Assembly (NCBI GenBank): GCA_030614485.1
Contig: JAUWTY010000023.1
Location: forward strand, 1 to 10,538
DNA length: 10,538 nt
Reading direction: 5' to 3'
DNA from: Methanosarcinales archaeon
GTDB lineage: Archaea > Halobacteriota > Methanosarcinia > Methanosarcinales > Methanocomedenaceae
The notes beneath the pieces were generated by a model. The model was not told where the DNA came from, searched no databases, and worked only from the letters and a program-made list of their open reading frames with translations. Below, in pieces: positions 1,508 to 8,358 of this stretch. The first letter of the stretch is position 1; each line of letters opens with the position of its first letter. Made by a program: the position numbers and the translations under genes.

Positions 1508-1542
1508 CATAAAATCCAAACAGAAAACCGGACTCAGTGCTT

Positions 1543-2445
1543 ATGACCAATAGTAATCACCGCATAGCCCAGTATGCCCAACTTGCCATGATACTGGAAG
1601 TAAGTGCCACACCTAAACCTGGCAATGTGGACAGGGACCATAACTATCCTGACACCCACTTCGAACATTTCCTGGCTTCGGCTGTAAGCGTGTACCCGGT
1701 GCTTGAGCAGGCATCACATGACCATGAAGGTATTGGCAGATATATCCACAAGGCTGTGCTTGAAAGCGGTAAATGGCAAAAAGGTGGAAATACTCATTTC
1801 GGCGCTTTTATGCTGCTTTTGCCGCTTGTAATGGCAGCAGGGAAACTTGCGAAAATGAACGAAAGCACACCCGAAATATTCCCTGAGTTGAAAAGCAGGA
1901 CCATGGAACTGGTGCAAAATACTACTGTGGAGGATGCGGTTGAGATCTATAAAGCATTTTCACAGGCAGGGGTGAAAGTAAAAGATGTATCTGACCTTGA
2001 CCTGAACGACCCGGCATCAATTGACAACATCAGGAGCAACGGGACTACATTGTACCAGTTGATGGAGATATCATCTTTATACGATATGATTGCAAGGGAG
2101 TGGACAGGTGGGTATCTCCTTACTTTCTCATGTGCCAACAGTATTCTTGGGAAAAAGGAACAAATATGCATAAATGATGCAGTAGTGTGGAGTTTCCTGG
2201 AGATACTCTCAGGAAATCCGGATACTTTCATCGGGATAAAATTCGACGGCCCGACGGCTGAGAATGTATCAGCGCGGGCAAAGAGCATCGTTAATACTAT
2301 TGAAGTTTCAGGATTTGATGATGCAAGAGATGACATCCGCGCTTTTGATGAAGAACTTATACGGGATGGTATAAATCCCGGGTCAACTGCAGATATTATG
2401 ATTGCCGGGCTGTTCGTTGCGTTGATGGGGGGACTGGAAGTTTGA
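1543..2445 (+). CDS. CitG/MdcB-like protein (triphosphoribosyl-dephospho-CoA synthase family)
   Basis: This 300-residue protein belongs to the CitG family. Bacterial members condense ATP with dephospho-CoA to make the prosthetic-group precursor of citrate or malonate lyase. Conserved segments are visible: TPKPGNVDRDHN near residues 23-34 and GGNTHFGAFMLLLPL at 81-95, the family's phosphate/nucleotide-binding stretches. The remainder is helical, as expected. Nothing in the window encodes a citrate lyase. The partner is a DUF447 gene overlapping the stop by TTGA, so the archaeal role is probably a different phosphoribosyl or nucleotide transfer, perhaps in C1-cofactor synthesis. That substrate idea is inference. 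ATG 1543 is preferred over GTG 1537, which would add two residues. No strong ribosome binding site is visible, consistent with a very short leader after the TATA box near 1501. Confidence 0.85.
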   Translation: MTNSNHRIAQYAQLAMILEVSATPKPGNVDRDHNYPDTHFEHFLASAVSVYPVLEQASHDHEGIGRYIHKAVLESGKWQKGGNTHFGAFMLLLPLVMAAGKLAKMNESTPEIFPELKSRTMELVQNTTVEDAVEIYKAFSQAGVKVKDVSDLDLNDPASIDNIRSNGTTLYQLMEISSLYDMIAREWTGGYLLTFSCANSILGKKEQICINDAVVWSFLEILSGNPDTFIGIKFDGPTAENVSARAKSIVNTIEVSGFDDARDDIRAFDEELIRDGINPGSTADIMIAGLFVALMGGLEV

Positions 2446-3026
2446 ATCTGGAACTTGACAGGTACGGTTTATGGGAGGGAATCAATGAGGTTATTGTGAC
2501 AACAGTTTCTTTAGATGGTAAACCCAATGCAGCACCTATAGGTATAATCAGGCGTGAGGGGAAACTCATGGTCAGGGTGTACAATGGCTCGCAAACTTAT
2601 TCCAACATAATGGAAACAAGACTGCTGGCTGCTAATATGGTCTATGACCCGGTATTGTTTGTACGCTCAGCATTGTCAGATGTGGATGATGATGTATTCA
2701 AATTTATAAAGACAGACAATGGTGAAGATTTTCCGGTGATAGCGGATTGCAATGCCTGGATGCTCTTTGAAGCAGAATTCAACAGTGAGAACACAGTCCT
2801 GGTCGCTGAATTGCATCCTGTAACCGGCACAATTAGGCAACAGGAGATAAGACCGGTGAATCGGGCTTTCAATGCTGTCATTGAAGCAGTAATTCTCGCA
2901 ACACGTTATAAAATTTTTAGGAAGGATAAATATTTATTACAGATAGAATCATATAGTAATACAATATATAAATGTGGAGGAAGTACTGAAAAAAATGCTT
3001 ATGACCTGATATTCAGGTTATTATAA
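2442..3026 (+). CDS. DUF447 family protein (flavin-reductase-like split-barrel fold)
   Basis: A 194-residue DUF447 protein. The family is mostly archaeal, has a split beta-barrel related to FMN-binding flavin reductases, and lacks an established reaction. Its signature N-terminus is present: YGLWEGINEVIVTT near residues 7-20, then a GKPNAAPIGII segment at about 25-35. A C-terminal helical part contains the family-like YKCGG tail near residues 176-180. The start is TTG at 2442, overlapping the previous stop as TTGA. A purine-rich GGGGGGACTGGAAG lies directly before it, and no better start exists before the conserved EGINE motif. Tight coupling with the CitG-like gene suggests that the two act in one pathway. 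I cannot name the substrate. No signal peptide or membrane helix is seen, so it should be cytoplasmic. Confidence 0.9.
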   Translation: MNLELDRYGLWEGINEVIVTTVSLDGKPNAAPIGIIRREGKLMVRVYNGSQTYSNIMETRLLAANMVYDPVLFVRSALSDVDDDVFKFIKTDNGEDFPVIADCNAWMLFEAEFNSENTVLVAELHPVTGTIRQQEIRPVNRAFNAVIEAVILATRYKIFRKDKYLLQIESYSNTIYKCGGSTEKNAYDLIFRLL

Positions 3027-3130: not shown

Positions 3131-3496
3131 TTGACTACAACAACCGAAATGCTTCAGGAAATACTTGAAAACCTGAAAAATCTGGGAAGTATAGAGGCAT
3201 GTGCCATAGCAAGTCGTGACGGCTTGTTAATGAGTTCAGATATGCCTGAGGGTATAATGGGTGAAACATTTGCCGCGATGTCTGCTACAATGCTGGGTGC
3301 TGCTGAAACAGCCGCATCTGAACTTGATAAAGGATTACCCAGTCGAGTGATTGTCGAATCGAAAAGCGGTAAATTAATTTGCATGGGTGCTGGACCAAAA
3401 GCACTTCTTGTTGCTATGACTGAGCATGATACAGGACTGGGTTTGATTTTACTGGAACTTGATAAAGCAGTTGCACATATAAAGGAAATAATTTAG
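3131..3496 (+). CDS. Roadblock/LC7 domain protein
   Basis: A 121-residue single-domain protein of the Roadblock/LC7 superfamily. These small alpha/beta proteins usually dimerise and, in prokaryotes, pair with small Ras-like GTPases or act as scaffolds in signalling. The diagnostic pattern is visible: an N-terminal helix, then IEACAIASRDGLLMSS near residues 21-36, a central helix rich in Ala and Met (FAAMSATMLGAAE), and the paired strands VIVESKSGKLICMGAG near 73-88. No transmembrane segment is present. The start TTG at 3131 is supported by AAGGTGG at 3117-3123, seven bases upstream; an internal ATG at 3149 has no such site. It is the first gene of the signalling cluster, and its stop TAG overlaps the GTG of the KaiC-like gene by one base. 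No GTPase gene lies in the window, so the partner may be the KaiC-like protein or a distant GTPase. Confidence 0.9.
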   Translation: MTTTTEMLQEILENLKNLGSIEACAIASRDGLLMSSDMPEGIMGETFAAMSATMLGAAETAASELDKGLPSRVIVESKSGKLICMGAGPKALLVAMTEHDTGLGLILLELDKAVAHIKEII

Positions 3497-4953
3497 TGGT
3501 TGTTATGAAGCAAGTGATATCAGGAATTTCCGGGCTTGATGAAATACTTGGTGAAGGTTTCACCAGACCGTCCACTGTTCTTATAGGGGGGATAATGGGC
3601 ACAGGAAAGACAACCTTTGCCATGCAGAGCCTTTTCAATGCAGCCAGGGAAGATGAAGTCTGTATGTACATTACTGCTATATCAGAACCCATTGCCATGA
3701 TAAACAATTTCATGTCGCGATTCAGTTTTTATAGTATTTCATTGATGGGTAAGGGTAACGTGAAGTATGTACCCCTTGACCCGGAGCAAATTAAAAAGGG
3801 TACTTCAGCTATTATCCAGGAGATTGAACGTAACATTGAGATTATCAAACCGGACCGCATTGTCATTGATCCGGTAAATGTGGTTACAAGCTGGATGGAT
3901 GAAAGCGAGAAGAGGGAATTCTATTATAATCTATTTAATAAAATGAAAGGGTGGAATTCATTGGTACTAATTACTGGTGAATTTTCTTATGAAAATATTT
4001 TGAATGACGAGATTAGTTACATTGCAGATGGGGTTATCTTCCTCTCAAATGATCAATTGAGAGATAAACGGGCGAGGCATCTGGAAGTCCTCAAAATGAG
4101 GGGGCAGAAGTATCTGTCTGGTAAACATTCATTTGAAATTACTGATGACGGTCTGAAGATTTATCCTTCGCTGCATCCTGATATGAGAAAACCATTGGCA
4201 TATGAGCATGTTCCTACTGGAATAAAAGGACTGGATAAAATGACCAATGGTGGCTTTATCCGGGGCAGCACTGTACTATTGAGCGGTGGGAGTGGAACCG
4301 GAAAGACATTGATAGGTCTTCAGTTCATTGTAAATGGTGCAAAGATGGGCGAACCAGGTGTTTTTGTTAGTTTTGAAGAGGATCCGGTGCTGCTTCGGAA
4401 TAATGCAGCAAGTTTTGGCTGTAACCTCGAAAAACTGGAGGCGGATGGTTTACTTAAAATAATCTATTCAAATTTAAGTCAACTTGAAGTGAACAAGATG
4501 GCTCTTGAGATTAAAGATATCGTGGAGGAATTGGATGCCAAACGCGTTGTCATAGACGGAGTCAATAATTTGAGGGTTGCACTGTTGGACGATTTGAGCA
4601 TGAGTGAATATGCATCTATTCTGTCAAGGTATTTCTCATCCAGAAACATCATTTCGCTGTTCACAAATGAGACTTCAGAACTTATGGGTTCGTCTTCTAT
4701 CACAGGAAATGGCTCATCTGTAGTTATGGACAGCATCATCCTGTTGCGATATGTGGAAATCCAGAGCGAAATGAAAAAAACTATATCGGTCTTAAAAATG
4801 AGGGGCAGTAACCACGATAAAGAGATTAGGGAATTTGTAATTAACAAGAAGGGAATTGAGATAAAATTACCATTCACTGAATATTCAGGATTGATGTCAG
4901 GCAATCCTGTAAAAACTCCTTCTCAGGCCTTTGTAGAAGCTTTCAAAAAATAA
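3496..4953 (+). CDS. KaiC-like protein with two RecA-type ATPase domains
   Basis: This 485-residue protein has tandem KaiC/RecA domains. Domain 1 (about 5-230) has Walker A GIMGTGKTT at 32-40 and Walker B RIVID at 121-125. Domain 2 (about 235-460) has Walker A GGSGTGKT at 264-271, the paired catalytic glutamates SFEEDP (E294, E295), Walker B RVVID at 350-354 and a KMRGSNHDKEIREF segment near 434-447 closely resembling cyanobacterial KaiC. In domain 1 the paired glutamates are replaced: the matching stretch reads TAISEP. Domain 2 retains Thr and Ser positions equivalent to KaiC T426 and S431 (T403, S408) but has Val409 where KaiC has T432. The family forms ATP-dependent oligomers in signalling. 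GTG 3496 overlaps the previous stop, with AAAGGA about ten bases upstream; ATG 3505 is an alternative. No KaiA or KaiB is present in the window. Confidence 0.93.
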   Translation: MVVMKQVISGISGLDEILGEGFTRPSTVLIGGIMGTGKTTFAMQSLFNAAREDEVCMYITAISEPIAMINNFMSRFSFYSISLMGKGNVKYVPLDPEQIKKGTSAIIQEIERNIEIIKPDRIVIDPVNVVTSWMDESEKREFYYNLFNKMKGWNSLVLITGEFSYENILNDEISYIADGVIFLSNDQLRDKRARHLEVLKMRGQKYLSGKHSFEITDDGLKIYPSLHPDMRKPLAYEHVPTGIKGLDKMTNGGFIRGSTVLLSGGSGTGKTLIGLQFIVNGAKMGEPGVFVSFEEDPVLLRNNAASFGCNLEKLEADGLLKIIYSNLSQLEVNKMALEIKDIVEELDAKRVVIDGVNNLRVALLDDLSMSEYASILSRYFSSRNIISLFTNETSELMGSSSITGNGSSVVMDSIILLRYVEIQSEMKKTISVLKMRGSNHDKEIREFVINKKGIEIKLPFTEYSGLMSGNPVKTPSQAFVEAFKK

Positions 4954-4966
4954 AATGTAATTGTAG

Positions 4967-5257
4967 GTGATTATACTGGACTATTCCTTGGTGACACAGG
5001 TGCTTCATTTTTATTCATGGATACTGATAAGCTTGTTAATAATTATTACCGGGGCTATTGGTTACTTCTATCAGAAAAAGTTCAACATCAAGACCAATTA
5101 TTATCTATTCATTATAGCTGCCGTACTGACATCAGGTGAGTTTCTACATTTTGTTGCTATGGATTATGTATGGATTGAGTTTATTCAAATGGCAGGTGTA
5201 CTATTAGCGTCAATTTTGACCTTGAAATTATATAATGCTATGACAGGGGCTGTGTGA
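4967..5257 (+). CDS. Small integral membrane protein, about three helices, unknown function
   Basis: A 96-residue hydrophobic protein that I do not recognise. Three likely membrane helices lie near residues 15-34, 45-62 and 68-90. A short basic loop (YQKKFNIKTN) follows the first helix and leads into YYLF. The layout mirrors the next gene, suggesting distant paralogy or two subunits of one membrane complex. The start is uncertain: GTG 4967 is the first start codon after an in-frame stop at 4964-4966, but no ribosome binding site precedes it. AGGTGA at 4965-4970 could instead serve a later start. It lies 13 bases after the KaiC-like gene and its TGA overlaps the next start, so it belongs to the same operon. 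Position between a KaiC-like ATPase and a membrane histidine kinase suggests a sensory or anchoring role, which is inference. Confidence 0.7.
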   Translation: MIILDYSLVTQVLHFYSWILISLLIIITGAIGYFYQKKFNIKTNYYLFIIAAVLTSGEFLHFVAMDYVWIEFIQMAGVLLASILTLKLYNAMTGAV

Positions 5258-5583
5258 TGTACTATTTCTTAAACTTCTTTTTTGAAGGGATTTCCATTGC
5301 TGCGTTTTTATCAATAATGTATGTGTTGTATAAACTTAGCCAGCATCTGGGCGAAGCCCTGCAGATGAAACCATATTACCACCTGTTTACCGTAGGTAGT
5401 GCACTGATTTATCTATCATTGTTCACAGATTTTACCGTACTTTGCAATTTAATGACTATCTCAGAATACCAATTATCTAAGTACCTGTTTATAGAAAATA
5501 TCATGCTATCGTTAGGCTTGACCTTATGTCTGTTATCAGCTTTGAAATACTGGGGCTGGTTGATAAAAGAGATATCTCATTGA
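5257..5583 (+). CDS. Small integral membrane protein, about three helices, unknown function
   Basis: A 108-residue hydrophobic protein, not recognised as any named family. Likely membrane helices lie near residues 5-24, 43-65 and 78-100. As in the preceding gene, the first helix is followed by a polar linker ending in YYHLF, and the last helix ends with an LKYW stretch comparable to LKLY in its neighbour. No enzyme motif is visible. ATG 5257 is chosen because AGGGG sits seven bases upstream and the TGATG overlap with the preceding stop indicates coupling. GTG 5254 would add one residue. The histidine kinase start follows 18 bases after the stop. A six-helix assembly of the two products acting as a membrane sensor or anchor for the KaiC-like or Roadblock proteins is possible, but nothing in the sequence proves it. 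Confidence 0.78.
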   Translation: MYYFLNFFFEGISIAAFLSIMYVLYKLSQHLGEALQMKPYYHLFTVGSALIYLSLFTDFTVLCNLMTISEYQLSKYLFIENIMLSLGLTLCLLSALKYWGWLIKEISH

Positions 5584-5601
5584 TGAAAAAGGGTGGGAGA
5601 T

Positions 5602-7926
5602 ATGGAAACATCCATCAGTAAAAGATTTGCATTTGCATTTTTAGTGATAACTTTTACTTCTTTTTTCATCGCTGGTGGGATGGGGGTGTACCTATTCAAT
5701 AATATGGTGCAAACCACCATCCAGAATGAAATTGGACATGATCTGGATGCGGCTGATGTTATATTCCAGACCCAGTTAACTAATACAGAGGAGATTGTAA
5801 AGTATTCATCTGGTTATTCACGTATACGTGATAATCTCATCAACAATGATTCTGCCGCCCTTCGCCAGGGACTTTTTGACATATACAATGAACGTTTCAA
5901 CGATACGATTGACATTCTTACGGTTACTGACAAGCATGGGGTGGTGATTGCCAGGGCCAGGAATCCTGCAGTGTTTGGTGATTCTGTAATAGATAACAGT
6001 CTTATCCAGCAGGCATTGACGGGTGAAACTATATCATCCACTGAAATAATGACACGTGGTGGACTGCTAAAGGAGAGTGAATTACTGGCCGTACAGGCAT
6101 ACATGGAATTCACACCCACACCCAAAGCAAAACCCAGACCTGATACAAATTCAACCTCTGGTATGGTATTGATGGCAGCTACACCCATATTTGACTATGA
6201 AGGTAATTTGGCTGGTGTGTTGTACGGGGCCAACCTGATAAACAGGGATTTCGCGATCGTTGACATAATAAAGGATGCTTTATTCAAAAACGTAGAATAT
6301 GACGGCAGGGATGTAGGCACTGTTACTATCTTCCAGGAAGATTTCAGGATATCAACCAATGTCTTCACAGATTCTGGGGAAAGGGCCATAACCACCAGGG
6401 TGTCACAGGAAGTCAATGAGGCGGTGCTGGAGAGGGGAGAGTCCTGGAATAGTAGAGCTTTTGTGGTGAATGCCTGGTATGTTACTGCTTATAAACCGAT
6501 ACGCAATTTTGATGGCGATATTATAGGTATAATGTACGTGGGCATACTTGAGCAGCCGTATATCGATGCAGGATATAAGATACTATGGGCATATCTTGGT
6601 TTTCTTTTTTTAGGTTTTGTATCTTCTATGTTTATCGCACGCTATTTTACCAAGTCCATCATCAGCCCGATTAAAAAATTAATTGAAGGGACTGAAGCAA
6701 TAGCAAAAGGGGAGTTTAAAGGTATAGATGTAATCACACATGATGAAATTGGAGAACTCGCCAATGCATTTAATGACATGGATGCAAAATTGCAGAATAC
6801 AATGGCTGACCTTATTTCATCCAGGAATGAGATTGAAGCCATATTTGAGAGCATCAGTGATGTTGCCAGCGCCCAGGATATGGATATGAAAATCACCTTT
6901 GCAAATAGATTGGCAAAAGACATGTATGGTGATGATATAATCGGACAATTTTGTTATAATGTATATGAAGGAAAAAGTGAGGTATGTGATGACTGCCCTG
7001 CGACTTCATTACTGGAGACTGGAGGTGTCGTACGAACGATTCATTCTAAATATGATAATGAAGGTGTGCAGTCTCATATTGAGACAACCGGTTCACCTTT
7101 GAAAGATGAGCAAGGCAATATTTCAGGTATGGTGATGATACGCAGGGATGTTACTGAGCAAAAGACACTTGAGAACGAATTAAGAGTGTCATATGTTAAC
7201 CTTGAGACGGCTTATGAAGAACTCAAACAACTTGACAAGATGAAATCAGAATTAGTTGCAAATATATCTCATGAAATACGCACGCCATTGACATCTATCA
7301 GGGGATATACTGAACTGATGCTGGACGGTACATTAGGCCAAACTACAAATCAGCAGCTTAAAGGCATGAAAGTGGTGCTTAGAAATGTGGATAGATTAAC
7401 CCGAATGATATCGAATGTGCTGGATCTGTCCAAGTTTGACCAGCAGGAACGAGTGGTCAAAGAAGTTGGATTGAAGGAGATTATTAAGCACGCTGTCGAT
7501 GATTTTGAGAATGAAATACCTTATAAGAGTATCGGTATAACAGTTGATGTGTCAGATAACCTGATACTGGAGTGTGATGCTGATGCACTGGAGCAGGTGT
7601 TTATTAATCTGCTGGGAAATGCTATAAAATTCACAGATAAAGGCGGTAGTGTATCGATACAGGCATATTACGAGGATGAACATCACATCCATATAGAAGT
7701 TATTGATACCGGGGTTGGGATTCCAGAGGATAAATTTGAGCTTGTGTTTGATAGGTTTTACCAGATAGATGCCAGTTCCACCCGAAAGTATGGGGGTACT
7801 GGTCTGGGACTTGCCATAACTAAGAAGATAGTGGAATGGCATAAAGGAACCATATGGGTGCGGAACAATCCGAACGGTAGCAGTGGAAGTGTTTTCCATA
7901 TTATTCTGCCAAGAAAGCATAATTAA
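5602..7926 (+). CDS. Sensor histidine kinase: Cache-type extracytoplasmic domain, HAMP, PAS, HisKA, HATPase
   Basis: A 774-residue membrane kinase. Order of parts: TM1 about 11-33; an extracytoplasmic region about 34-325 of Cache type, a ligand-binding fold; TM2 about 326-347; HAMP about 348-400, including the DEIGELANAF stretch; a linker; PAS about 408-520 ending in the usual VMIRRDVTEQ; a coiled coil; HisKA with ISHEIRTPL (phospho-acceptor H557); and a HATPase domain with N-box N673, DTGVG (702-706) and GGTGLGL (731-737). All catalytic motifs are intact. The PAS has Cys451, Cys462 and Cys465 (C-X10-C-X2-C), a pattern known in some PAS domains that might bind a metal or respond to redox. ATG 5602 is preferred, with GGGTGGG immediately upstream; GTG 5593 would add three residues. 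The response regulator 63 bases downstream is the likely partner. The ligand is unknown. Confidence 0.95.
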   Translation: METSISKRFAFAFLVITFTSFFIAGGMGVYLFNNMVQTTIQNEIGHDLDAADVIFQTQLTNTEEIVKYSSGYSRIRDNLINNDSAALRQGLFDIYNERFNDTIDILTVTDKHGVVIARARNPAVFGDSVIDNSLIQQALTGETISSTEIMTRGGLLKESELLAVQAYMEFTPTPKAKPRPDTNSTSGMVLMAATPIFDYEGNLAGVLYGANLINRDFAIVDIIKDALFKNVEYDGRDVGTVTIFQEDFRISTNVFTDSGERAITTRVSQEVNEAVLERGESWNSRAFVVNAWYVTAYKPIRNFDGDIIGIMYVGILEQPYIDAGYKILWAYLGFLFLGFVSSMFIARYFTKSIISPIKKLIEGTEAIAKGEFKGIDVITHDEIGELANAFNDMDAKLQNTMADLISSRNEIEAIFESISDVASAQDMDMKITFANRLAKDMYGDDIIGQFCYNVYEGKSEVCDDCPATSLLETGGVVRTIHSKYDNEGVQSHIETTGSPLKDEQGNISGMVMIRRDVTEQKTLENELRVSYVNLETAYEELKQLDKMKSELVANISHEIRTPLTSIRGYTELMLDGTLGQTTNQQLKGMKVVLRNVDRLTRMISNVLDLSKFDQQERVVKEVGLKEIIKHAVDDFENEIPYKSIGITVDVSDNLILECDADALEQVFINLLGNAIKFTDKGGSVSIQAYYEDEHHIHIEVIDTGVGIPEDKFELVFDRFYQIDASSTRKYGGTGLGLAITKKIVEWHKGTIWVRNNPNGSSGSVFHIILPRKHN

Positions 7927-7939
7927 TGAAATATATAGC

Positions 7940-7947
7940 TATAAATA
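7940..7947 (+). promoter_or_regulatory. TATA box of the response regulator gene
   Basis: TATAAATA at 7940-7947 lies 43-50 bases before the TTG start, predicting transcription start near 7970. An adjoining 10-base palindrome TATAGCTATA (7934-7943) overlaps the box. The regulator can therefore probably be transcribed independently of the kinase. Confidence 0.55.
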
Positions 7948-7975
7948 ATATGAACTTAAGAAATAGATATAAACC

Positions 7976-7982
7976 GGAGGAG
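7976..7982 (+). promoter_or_regulatory. Strong ribosome binding site fixing a TTG start
   Basis: GGAGGAG ends seven bases before TTG 7990. It is the strongest such site in the window and settles TTG as the start. The frame immediately reads MAKILVVDDE, the canonical receiver N-terminus. Confidence 0.8.
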
Positions 7983-7989
7983 AATTTTT

Positions 7990-8358
7990 TTGGCAAAGAT
8001 ACTGGTAGTGGACGATGAACCTGATACGGTAGACCTTGTAAAACTTGTCCTGGAAACTGAAGGATATCAAACCTCTGTTGCATACAACGGAGAGGAAGCC
8101 CTTGAGATGATCAAGATTGATAAGCCGGATCTTGTGTTACTTGACATCATGATGCCAAAAATGGATGGTTGGGCCATCAGAAAGAAGATTATTGATAATG
8201 AAGAGACCAGGGACATACCTATTGTCATGTTAACTGCTAAAGCCCAGCCGATTGATAAGATGATTGGGCTGCATGTAATAGGTGTAACAGATTATATTAC
8301 CAAGCCTTTCGGCCGCCAGGAACTCATTGATAGTGTGAAAAAGGCTATTGGGGAGTAG
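7990..8358 (+). CDS. Receiver-only response regulator (CheY/Spo0F-like)
   Basis: A 122-residue receiver domain without an output domain. The acidic pocket D8-D9, phosphorylation site D52 in LLDIMMPKMDG, the switch residue T82 in MLTAKA and the conserved K105 in TKPFG are all present, so it should accept phosphate from a histidine kinase. The start is TTG at 7990, fixed by GGAGGAG seven bases upstream. It lies 63 bases after the histidine kinase, its probable partner, and has its own TATA box near 7943. Without a DNA-binding domain it must act by protein contact, for example on a downstream phosphotransfer protein, the KaiC-like ATPase or a transcription factor elsewhere. These targets are inference. 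No further signalling gene follows; the next gene is tyrosyl-tRNA synthetase under its own promoter. Confidence 0.96.
   Translation: MAKILVVDDEPDTVDLVKLVLETEGYQTSVAYNGEEALEMIKIDKPDLVLLDIMMPKMDGWAIRKKIIDNEETRDIPIVMLTAKAQPIDKMIGLHVIGVTDYITKPFGRQELIDSVKKAIGE

What the first reader, a model, noticed from the sequence alone, without database searches (positions are those of the whole stretch)
3131..8358. Roadblock-KaiC-membrane pair-histidine kinase-receiver cluster: candidate undescribed signalling system
Six genes on one strand, mostly overlapping or nearly so, join a Roadblock protein, a double KaiC-like ATPase, two unknown three-helix membrane proteins and a complete His-Asp pair. KaiC-like ATPases have been proposed as signalling hubs in archaea. 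This set adds membrane partners and an explicit sensor with a Cache domain. It could integrate an external ligand with an ATP-driven switch or timer.
Basis: partly seen in the sequence, partly recalled or inferred. Interest (0 to 1): 0.75.

Follow-up and report, generated by a model that had tools for sequence, protein, structure and literature searches.

The report
Membrane-linked KaiC signalling gene cluster
A gene cluster of methane-oxidising archaea ties a KaiC-type ATPase to a pair of small membrane proteins of unknown function and, in many copies, to a sensor kinase and a receiver; it looks like a membrane-docked molecular switch rather than a clock, and I know of no laboratory test of it.

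Summary
The six genes are real and correctly read. The host is an ANME-2 archaeon. Linkage is conserved, but the invariant unit is smaller. In 87 TM2 loci other than the window, TM1 sits beside the second membrane protein (TM2) in 86, and KaiC, or its end at a contig edge, lies upstream in 82. Kinase and receiver join that core in the window's family and in most Methanoperedenaceae loci, in two opposite orders. Family f4 almost lacks them, and two of three Methanocellaceae loci have the receiver alone. The receiver's subfamily also outlives the module: two genomes of the window's family deleted Roadblock-to-kinase in one block and kept it. 'Timer' is not supported: CI lacks the catalytic glutamates in 52 of 52 module KaiCs examined, no Ser-Thr phosphosite pair was seen, and KaiB was not found in 17 genomes of the window's family. 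Best reading: a membrane-docked KaiC switch with TM1/TM2 as new partners, fed in many ANME-2-type copies by a kinase-receiver relay; output unknown. A new variant of the proposed archaeal 'KaiC hub', whose founding paper was not held.

The parts
3131..3496 (+). Roadblock/LC7 protein (121 aa, TTG start)
   Evidence: PF03259 E 7.2e-15; upstream of KaiC in 6 of 7 other family-f1 loci, the 7th cut at a contig end
3496..4953 (+). Two-domain KaiC-family ATPase (likely start ATG 3505)
   Evidence: PF06745 E 1.9e-96, two stretches; best PDB relative KaiC 8zn5 E 4e-90
3586..3615 (+). CI Walker A region (GGIMGTGKTT), intact
   Evidence: K38 and T39 in 52 of 52 module KaiCs examined
3673..3690 (+). CI site of the catalytic Glu pair, here T-A-I-S-E-P
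   Evidence: EE-equivalents are I/L/M and S/T in 52 of 52; placed by eye against the CI letters of PDB KaiC
4282..4308 (+). CII Walker A, intact
   Evidence: K270 in 52 of 52
4369..4383 (+). CII catalytic Glu pair (SFEED), intact
   Evidence: E294 and E295 in 52 of 52
4702..4722 (+). Equivalent of the KaiC T426/S431/T432 phosphosite: T-G-N-G-S-S-V, second acceptor is Val
   Evidence: PDB alignment; position 409 is Ser in 2, Tyr in 9, other in 41 of 52
4967..5257 (+). TM1: small three-helix membrane protein, no Pfam family over cut-off
   Evidence: AlphaFold2 pLDDT 91.6
5254..5583 (+). TM2: small three-helix membrane protein with the conserved C-terminal KYWGWLIKE
   Evidence: AlphaFold2 pLDDT 89.8; 290 relatives in the protein database, 120 listed
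5593..7926 (+). Sensor histidine kinase (777 aa): Cache, HAMP, PAS, HisKA, HATPase_c
6235..6564 (+). sCache_3_3 sensor domain of the kinase
   Evidence: PF17202 E 4.1e-31
7240..7443 (+). HisKA domain with H-box SHEIRTPLT
   Evidence: PF00512 E 2.3e-19; H-box read in the translation
7990..8358 (+). Stand-alone receiver (122 aa), no output domain; D8, D9, D52, T82, K105 present
   Evidence: PF00072 E 8.9e-29; alignment A9

Best explanation
A membrane-docked KaiC switch. TM1 and TM2, probably distant paralogues, form a pair in the membrane whose conserved cytoplasmic loops and tails form a dock for a KaiC ring. Domain CI binds ATP but has lost its catalytic glutamates; CII is the working ATPase/kinase. 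The Roadblock protein, where present, acts as an adaptor on KaiC. In the window's lineage a Cache/PAS kinase senses an outside ligand and phosphorylates the stand-alone receiver; having no output domain, the receiver acts by binding a protein, most likely the KaiC/TM assembly, and flips its nucleotide state. It is a switch, not a clock. SHOWN: gene content, domains, conserved KaiC-TM1-TM2 unit, recurrent linkage to kinase and receiver, residue losses in KaiC, three-helix models, no KaiB found in family f1. INFERRED: ring formation, ATP binding by CI, docking, phosphotransfer, receiver-KaiC contact, direction of signal. UNKNOWN: ligand and output.
For: TM1 lies on the same strand next to TM2 in 86 of 87 loci (stop to stop 666 nt in L169, 284 to at most 380 nt in the other 85); the exception ends 80 nt upstream of TM2. 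KaiC is in the same gene run in 78 of 87, and KaiC sequence is directly upstream in four more (L188 shortened; L185, L153 and L142 C-terminal end only). The core survives a change of KaiC type: in Methanocellaceae a single-domain KaiC precedes TM1-TM2. Kinase and receiver orders differ (HK-REC in f1 and Methanoperedenaceae copy a, REC-HK in 16 copy-b loci and HK-REC in 4; kinase usually without receiver in f2), yet the content tends to be kept. Receivers of this subfamily score 141-230 bits; in 14 of 14 genomes tested no other receiver scores above 122. The same receiver type lies beside other KaiC-family ATPases: single-domain KaiC in 2 of 3 Methanocellaceae loci, and a GvpD/KaiC-like ATPase in L219 nearby and in eight g16 loci of family f4, with ArlH further downstream in L228. 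The conserved TM1/TM2 stretches are the positively charged, presumably cytoplasmic ones: 2.7-3.2 bits per position against 1.6-1.8 in the outer loops. TM1/TM2 profile match: probability 82%, E 1e-5.
Against: No interaction, expression or phosphotransfer data were available. Kinase in 1 of 10 and receiver in 0 of 10 family-f4 loci; no kinase in 3 Methanocellaceae loci; receiver in 1 of 13 f2 loci. TM1-TM2 stand without KaiC in L140 and L141, and KaiC stands without TM1-TM2 in L037, L095 and eight f4 loci. The receiver is kept in two genomes that deleted the rest and its subfamily occurs in 32 of 65 relatives without TM2, often away from any KaiC gene, so it must also do something else. Kinase types differ widely, and the base rate of kinase genes was not computed. 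Foldseek finds no PDB match for TM1 or TM2 at E <= 0.001. The KaiC tree does not join copy b with the other module KaiCs. The first TM1-TM2 comparison, with narrower alignments, gave only 37% probability.
Confidence: 0.5

Rival explanations
1. Two neighbours, not one system: a KaiC-TM1-TM2(-Roadblock) module of its own, and an ordinary kinase-receiver pair that shares the operon and feeds other targets, such as archaellum or pilus motors.
For: Family f4 has Roadblock-KaiC-TM1-TM2 without kinase or receiver in 6 of 10 loci. The receiver survives deletion of the module in G010 and G012. In family f4 a relative of it (L228) sits beside an archaellum operon with ArlF, ArlG, ArlH and FlaI.
Against: Kinase in 47 and receiver in 50 of 54 Methanoperedenaceae loci, mostly in opposite orders in the two copies, a pattern that selection for togetherness explains better than inertia.
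Confidence: 0.27
2. Signal runs the other way: KaiC state drives the kinase, as KaiC drives SasA/CikA in cyanobacteria, and the receiver is the output.
For: Kinase and receiver lie downstream of KaiC in nearly all loci that have them; HK-REC lies upstream in L167. The Methanoperedens nitroreducens copy (L025) has a 368-aa PAS kinase in which Pfam finds no outside sensor domain.
Against: Pfam finds no KaiB-like domain in the window's kinase, and PMC5520375 (passages) says that KaiC-SasA contact runs through that domain and that non-cyanobacterial SasA homologues lack it. Window-type kinases have their own Cache sensor.
Confidence: 0.12
3. A KaiC-based timer or clock.
For: Full two-domain KaiC with intact CII active site and S431-equivalent. 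Two recombinant archaeal KaiC3 proteins were phosphorylated in vitro (PMC5520375, passages).
Against: CI catalytic Glu pair absent in 52 of 52; second phosphosite Ser in only 2 of 52, Tyr in 9. KaiB in 0 of 17 family-f1 genomes, including nearly complete ones. Three Methanocellaceae loci use a single-domain KaiC.
Confidence: 0.04
4. TM1-TM2 is itself a small-molecule sensor or transporter and KaiC only regulates or energises it.
For: Methanocellaceae copies lie near ABC-transporter genes and 21 of 54 Methanoperedenaceae loci hold a PhnD-type binding protein. TM1-TM2 can stand alone.
Against: The best conserved stretches are at the presumed cytoplasmic face, not in the outer loops. Three short helices per chain leave little room for a solute path (inference).
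Confidence: 0.07

Closest known systems
Archaeal 'KaiC hub' proposal (Makarova, Galperin, Koonin 2017; not held, known to me by recall and as cited in PMC5847659)
   Same: KaiC-like ATPases linked to input and output domains. PMC5847659 (passages) reports KaiC-REC fusions in six Methanosarcinaceae genera.
   Different: Here KaiC is unfused and tied to a pair of small membrane proteins, with kinase, receiver and Roadblock as separate genes. I could not check whether that paper shows this neighbourhood.
Cyanobacterial KaiABC with SasA/CikA and RpaA
   Same: Two-domain KaiC beside a two-component pair; best PDB relative is KaiC.
   Different: No KaiB found in the window's family; CI catalytic glutamates and the phosphosite pair absent; no KaiB-like domain found in the kinase; receiver lacks a DNA-binding domain; two membrane partners added.
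Archaellum motor ArlH (KaiC fold) on the membrane platform ArlJ (the ArlJ contact is recalled)
   Same: KaiC-family ATPase working at a membrane protein; a relative of this receiver lies beside arlFGHI in L228 of family f4.
   Different: TM1/TM2 have no sequence match to solved proteins and no Pfam family over cut-off; no ArlI-type motor ATPase is in the cluster.
Canonical Cache-HAMP-PAS kinase with CheY-like receiver
   Same: All catalytic domains present.
   Different: Regular company of KaiC-TM1-TM2 in the window's family and in Methanoperedenaceae.
MglA/MglB- and Cvn-type Roadblock systems (recalled)
   Same: Small free-standing Roadblock protein; PDB relatives include 9jue, 7yh1 and 3leq (cvnB5).
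   Different: No small GTPase is in the cluster; the neighbour is a KaiC ATPase.

Membership tests
Cyanobacterial-type KaiC clock | Two KaiC domains with Walker A | tested here: met
   PF06745 two stretches; both Walker Lys in 52 of 52
Cyanobacterial-type KaiC clock | Catalytic Glu pair in CI and CII | tested here: not met
   CII yes, CI no, 52 of 52; CI position placed by eye
Cyanobacterial-type KaiC clock | S431-T432 phosphosite pair | tested here: not met
   First site Ser in 50 of 52; second Ser in 2, Tyr in 9, never Thr
Cyanobacterial-type KaiC clock | KaiB encoded in the genome | tested here: not met
   0 of 17 family-f1 genomes; own genome 58% complete; many Methanoperedenaceae genomes have KaiB elsewhere
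Cyanobacterial-type KaiC clock | KaiA | not tested
   PMC5520375 abstract (seen): KaiA only in cyanobacteria
Archaeal KaiC hub | KaiC-family ATPase linked to signalling input/output domains | tested here: met
Archaeal KaiC hub | Physical interaction of KaiC with those partners | not testable with these tools
Two-component system | HisKA His, HATPase, receiver Asp/Lys | tested here: met
Two-component system | Phosphotransfer between this kinase and this receiver | not testable with these tools
SasA-type kinase | KaiB-like N-terminal domain | tested here: not met
   Pfam finds Cache, HAMP and PAS instead
Archaellum ArlH/ArlJ platform | ArlH equivalog score | tested here: not met
   ArlH 67.9 bits, cut-off 215
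Roadblock-GTPase pair | Small GTPase gene beside Roadblock | tested here: not met
   neighbours are DUF447 and KaiC

The most novel reading that the evidence does not exclude
TM1-TM2 is the first recognised dedicated membrane receptor pair for KaiC-family ATPases: a half-and-half dock that turns a KaiC ring into a membrane-bound, phospho-relay-gated switch, found in ANME-2, Methanoperedens, Methanosarcinaceae-type and Methanocella lineages and fitted with interchangeable sensors (Cache kinase, PhnD-type lipoprotein plus kinase, soluble PAS kinase).
Probability: 0.4. Interest if true: 0.72.

Novelty: new variant of a known kind. Interest (0 to 1): 0.55.

Why it matters
Archaeal genomes hold many KaiC-like ATPases whose partners are mostly unknown. 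A membrane pair found almost only behind a KaiC gene gives a direct handle: it names the protein to pull down, and a genus with natural deletions to compare with. It would also put an ATP-driven switch and a ligand sensor in one operon of anaerobic methane oxidisers, whose signalling is, as far as I know, little studied.

Tried and rejected
Rejected: the clock reading. Rejected: 'six genes are the unit'. Rejected: 'restricted to methane oxidisers', because G019 and Methanocellaceae have TM1/TM2. Considered: that the N-terminal half of the second receiver protein (X-REC) in family f4 is a dead KaiC; profile comparison gave probability 0.2%, so not claimed. Considered: that L089's 380-aa REC protein is that same X-REC; only the receiver part matches well, and its N-terminus is a VUPS domain. 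Fold searches with TM1 and TM2 gave nothing usable. PDB profile searches gave 0 matches. NCBIfam LPxTATN for TM1 is under its cut-off and taken as chance hydrophobicity. PF24008/DUF7322 on one TM2 relative is under cut-off. Rfam found nothing over gathering score in the window. Literature: the listings of searches showed me no paper describing this neighbourhood; KaiC with Methanoperedens 0 papers (39), KaiC with ANME-2 0 papers (100). A search for PDB code 9JUE found 0 papers (99). Passages were read of PMC5847659, PMC6393860 and PMC5520375; no paper was read whole.
Full report
WHAT IS THERE. Six + strand genes at 3131-8358 are as described: Roadblock (121 aa), two-domain KaiC (485 aa; most relatives start at its fourth residue), TM1 (96), TM2 (109), a 777-aa kinase (Cache, HAMP, PAS, HisKA, HATPase) and a 122-aa receiver. 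Upstream are a citG homologue and DUF447; downstream tyrS and, on the other strand, a membrane pyrophosphatase-like gene (name from my reading of the sequence). The window is the whole contig C93 of a 58% complete assembly. The nearest named relatives are 'ANME-2 cluster archaeon' MAGs, KaiC 93% identical at best.

HOW CONSERVED. A scan of named genomes with KaiC gave 27 loci. The order ROBL-KaiC-TM1-TM2-HK-REC was found in the ANME-2 loci (L015 cut by its contig end), and in most Candidatus Methanoperedens loci, usually with an extra PhnD-type lipoprotein gene between TM2 and kinase; L035 and L037 have KaiC without TM1/TM2. With profiles of TM2 (A4) and TM1 (A5, A7) I went on: TM2 in 54 of 119 relatives, 62 of 237 genomes of the class and 12 of 392 in a sample of the phylum, two of these weak partial matches. 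TM1 in that sample matched 14 of 392 genomes at E <= 0.01: 10 strongly, the same 10 as TM2, and 4 weakly. The 87 full-length TM2 loci other than the window were fetched and annotated (census); a 51-nt partial match and the two weak ones were left out. Some genomes give two loci.

CENSUS (k of n). KaiC in the same gene run: f1 6/7, f2 13/13, f4 7/10, f5 49/54, f15 3/3, together 78/87. I searched the other 9 with tblastn: L188 has a shortened KaiC upstream; L185, L153 and L142 have the KaiC C-terminal end directly upstream of TM1 (L185 and L153 then reach the contig end; in L142 no more KaiC was found in the 311 nt left); L150 and L152 end too soon to tell; L154 shows none in 766 nt; L140 and L141 truly have TM1-TM2 alone. 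So 82/87 have KaiC sequence upstream. TM1: 86/87, all on the same strand. Kinase: 6/7, 8/13, 1/10, 47/54, 0/3; the missing f1 case, L189, is cut by the contig end inside the kinase (as L015). Receiver: 6/7, 1/13, 0/10, 50/54, 2/3. Roadblock: 6/7, 3/13, 7/10, 24/54, 0/3. PhnD lipoprotein: 21/54 in f5, 0 elsewhere. Orders differ: HK-REC in f1 and Methanoperedenaceae copy a; in copy b REC-HK in 16 loci, HK-REC in 4; KaiC-TM1-TM2-HK-ROBL in two f2 loci; HK-REC before KaiC in L167. f15 is Methanocellaceae (contig length and name MCP_2526, Methanocella paludicola). I take f4 to be Methanosarcinaceae because the length of G019 matches Methanosalsum zhilinae as I recall it. f2 is unnamed here.

DISTRIBUTION IS PATCHY. 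In the window's own family, TM2 was found in 6 of 8 g1 genomes, 2 of 6 g4 genomes and 0 of 3 in g2 and g3. Two g4 genomes show one reason: G010 (L238) and G012 (L239) keep citG-DUF447-REC-tyrS in the same place. The DNA between matches the g4 locus L109 (reverse complement) up to mid-Roadblock (position 3702) and resumes near the kinase end (8180), with 14 nt shared at the junction: a deletion of about 4.5 kb with Roadblock remnants and an open receiver frame.

KAIC. In a tree of 78 proteins, the module KaiCs of f1, f2, f4 and f5 copy a fall together (support 0.985, midpoint rooting) along with eight KaiC-only loci of f4 (same flanks by ORF size) and L037; copy b falls apart from them, with other KaiCs, and includes L095, which has no TM1/TM2. 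For residues I used 52 module KaiCs: 12 of copy a and 13 of copy b chosen by hand, the rest from f1, f2 and f4; L210 was dropped as too short. Both Walker lysines 52/52; CI catalytic glutamates 0/52; CII glutamates 52/52; S431-equivalent Ser 50, Thr 1, Ala 1; T432-equivalent Ser 2, Tyr 9, other 41, Thr 0. Motif names follow PMC5520375 (passages), which reports Ser-Ser in KaiC2 and Tyr at the second site of some KaiC3, so a variant phosphosite is not excluded in those few. KaiB (PF07689): 0 of 17 f1 genomes, while many Methanoperedenaceae genomes have it, at places other than the module.

TM1 AND TM2. No Pfam family over cut-off, no PDB sequence match, no PDB fold match at E <= 0.001. Each is predicted as three helices with high confidence. 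Profile comparison links them to each other (82%, E 1e-5; 37% with the narrower first alignments). The loop after helix 1 and the C-terminus carry positive charge and most of the conservation: TM2 3.24 and 3.03 bits against 1.56 in the outer loop, TM1 2.97 and 2.66 against 1.78 (segment borders set by me). By the positive-inside rule these face the cytoplasm, where KaiC would be. TM1 and TM2 frames overlap in 71 of 86 loci, and KaiC stop to TM1 start has a median of -4 nt (n = 79), both counted from the longest ORF.

RECEIVER. A profile of module receivers finds, in 14 of 14 genomes, one or two receivers at 166-227 bits and no other above 122. At E <= 1e-40 it is present in 82 of 119 relatives, single-copy in 60 of the 82: in 50 of 54 with TM2 and 32 of 65 without (Fisher p 2.7e-7, not corrected for shared ancestry). 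Where it lies outside the module its neighbours vary: in f2 an aldehyde-dehydrogenase-like gene in L214, L215 and L217, other or unseen genes in L216, L218 and L235-L237; in two f4 genera (L224, L225, L230-L232) ribosomal-protein genes nearby; in eight g16 loci of f4 a GvpD/KaiC-like ATPase, a second receiver protein and, in L228 where I checked, an archaellum operon; in L220 the second receiver protein and similar genes but no GvpD-like ATPase (the aldehyde dehydrogenase and ribosomal names are my reading). So it keeps KaiC-family company in several settings, but not always.

MECHANISM. Shown: content, conservation, residue state, fold class. Inferred: KaiC docks on TM1-TM2; kinase to receiver to KaiC is the likely flow where both are present, because the receiver has no output domain and sits with KaiC-family ATPases, in two Methanocellaceae loci with no kinase beside it. 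The sensor part looks interchangeable in the kinases I scanned: sCache (window, L109), dCache (L070, L074, L079), GAF and PAS types, a PAS-only kinase (L025), or an added PhnD-type lipoprotein. L089, in a genome of the window's genus, shows another two-domain KaiC 38 nt upstream of a VUPS-REC fusion; its N-terminal part was found in 1 of 119 genomes, so it is only an anecdote.

VERDICT. Real, conserved and in part new to me: a KaiC-TM1-TM2 unit with optional Roadblock, kinase and receiver. It fits the published KaiC-hub idea and adds membrane partners. Not a clock by present evidence.

Noticed in passing
L238 5583-6033 and L239 5535-6022: Natural block deletion of Roadblock-to-kinase at the same syntenic place, leaving remnants and an open receiver frame; the same junction in two genomes.
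   Followed up: yes
L089 2100-4765: Two-domain KaiC followed by a VUPS domain fused to a receiver; its N-terminal part was found in 1 of 119 genomes.
   Followed up: partly
L228 3488-12284; similar by ORF sizes in L226, L227, L229, L233, L234, L242, L243: GvpD/KaiC-like ATPase, an unknown domain fused to a receiver, and the stand-alone receiver, next to an archaellum operon (ArlF, ArlG, ArlH, FlaI identified in L228 only).
   Followed up: partly
L160-L162: Methanocella: single-domain KaiC-TM1-TM2 (and receiver in two of three) near ABC-transporter genes (names from my reading).
   Followed up: partly
L021 13078-15448 and most other Methanoperedenaceae copy-a loci: DUF2150 follows the receiver; in L021 then a methyltransferase and an FtsJ-type methyltransferase. 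DUF2150 function unknown.
   Followed up: no
L140, L141: TM1-TM2 without KaiC at the place (by flanking ORF sizes) where other genera have KaiC without TM1-TM2 (L081-L086) or Roadblock-KaiC-TM1-TM2 (L145-L149).
   Followed up: partly
G037:C53, G029:C75, G044:C49 and others: Several Methanoperedenaceae genomes carry two KaiB genes side by side, away from this module.
   Followed up: no
window 1537-3026: citG homologue and DUF447 stay neighbours at this place in family-f1 loci, also where the module is deleted.
   Followed up: no
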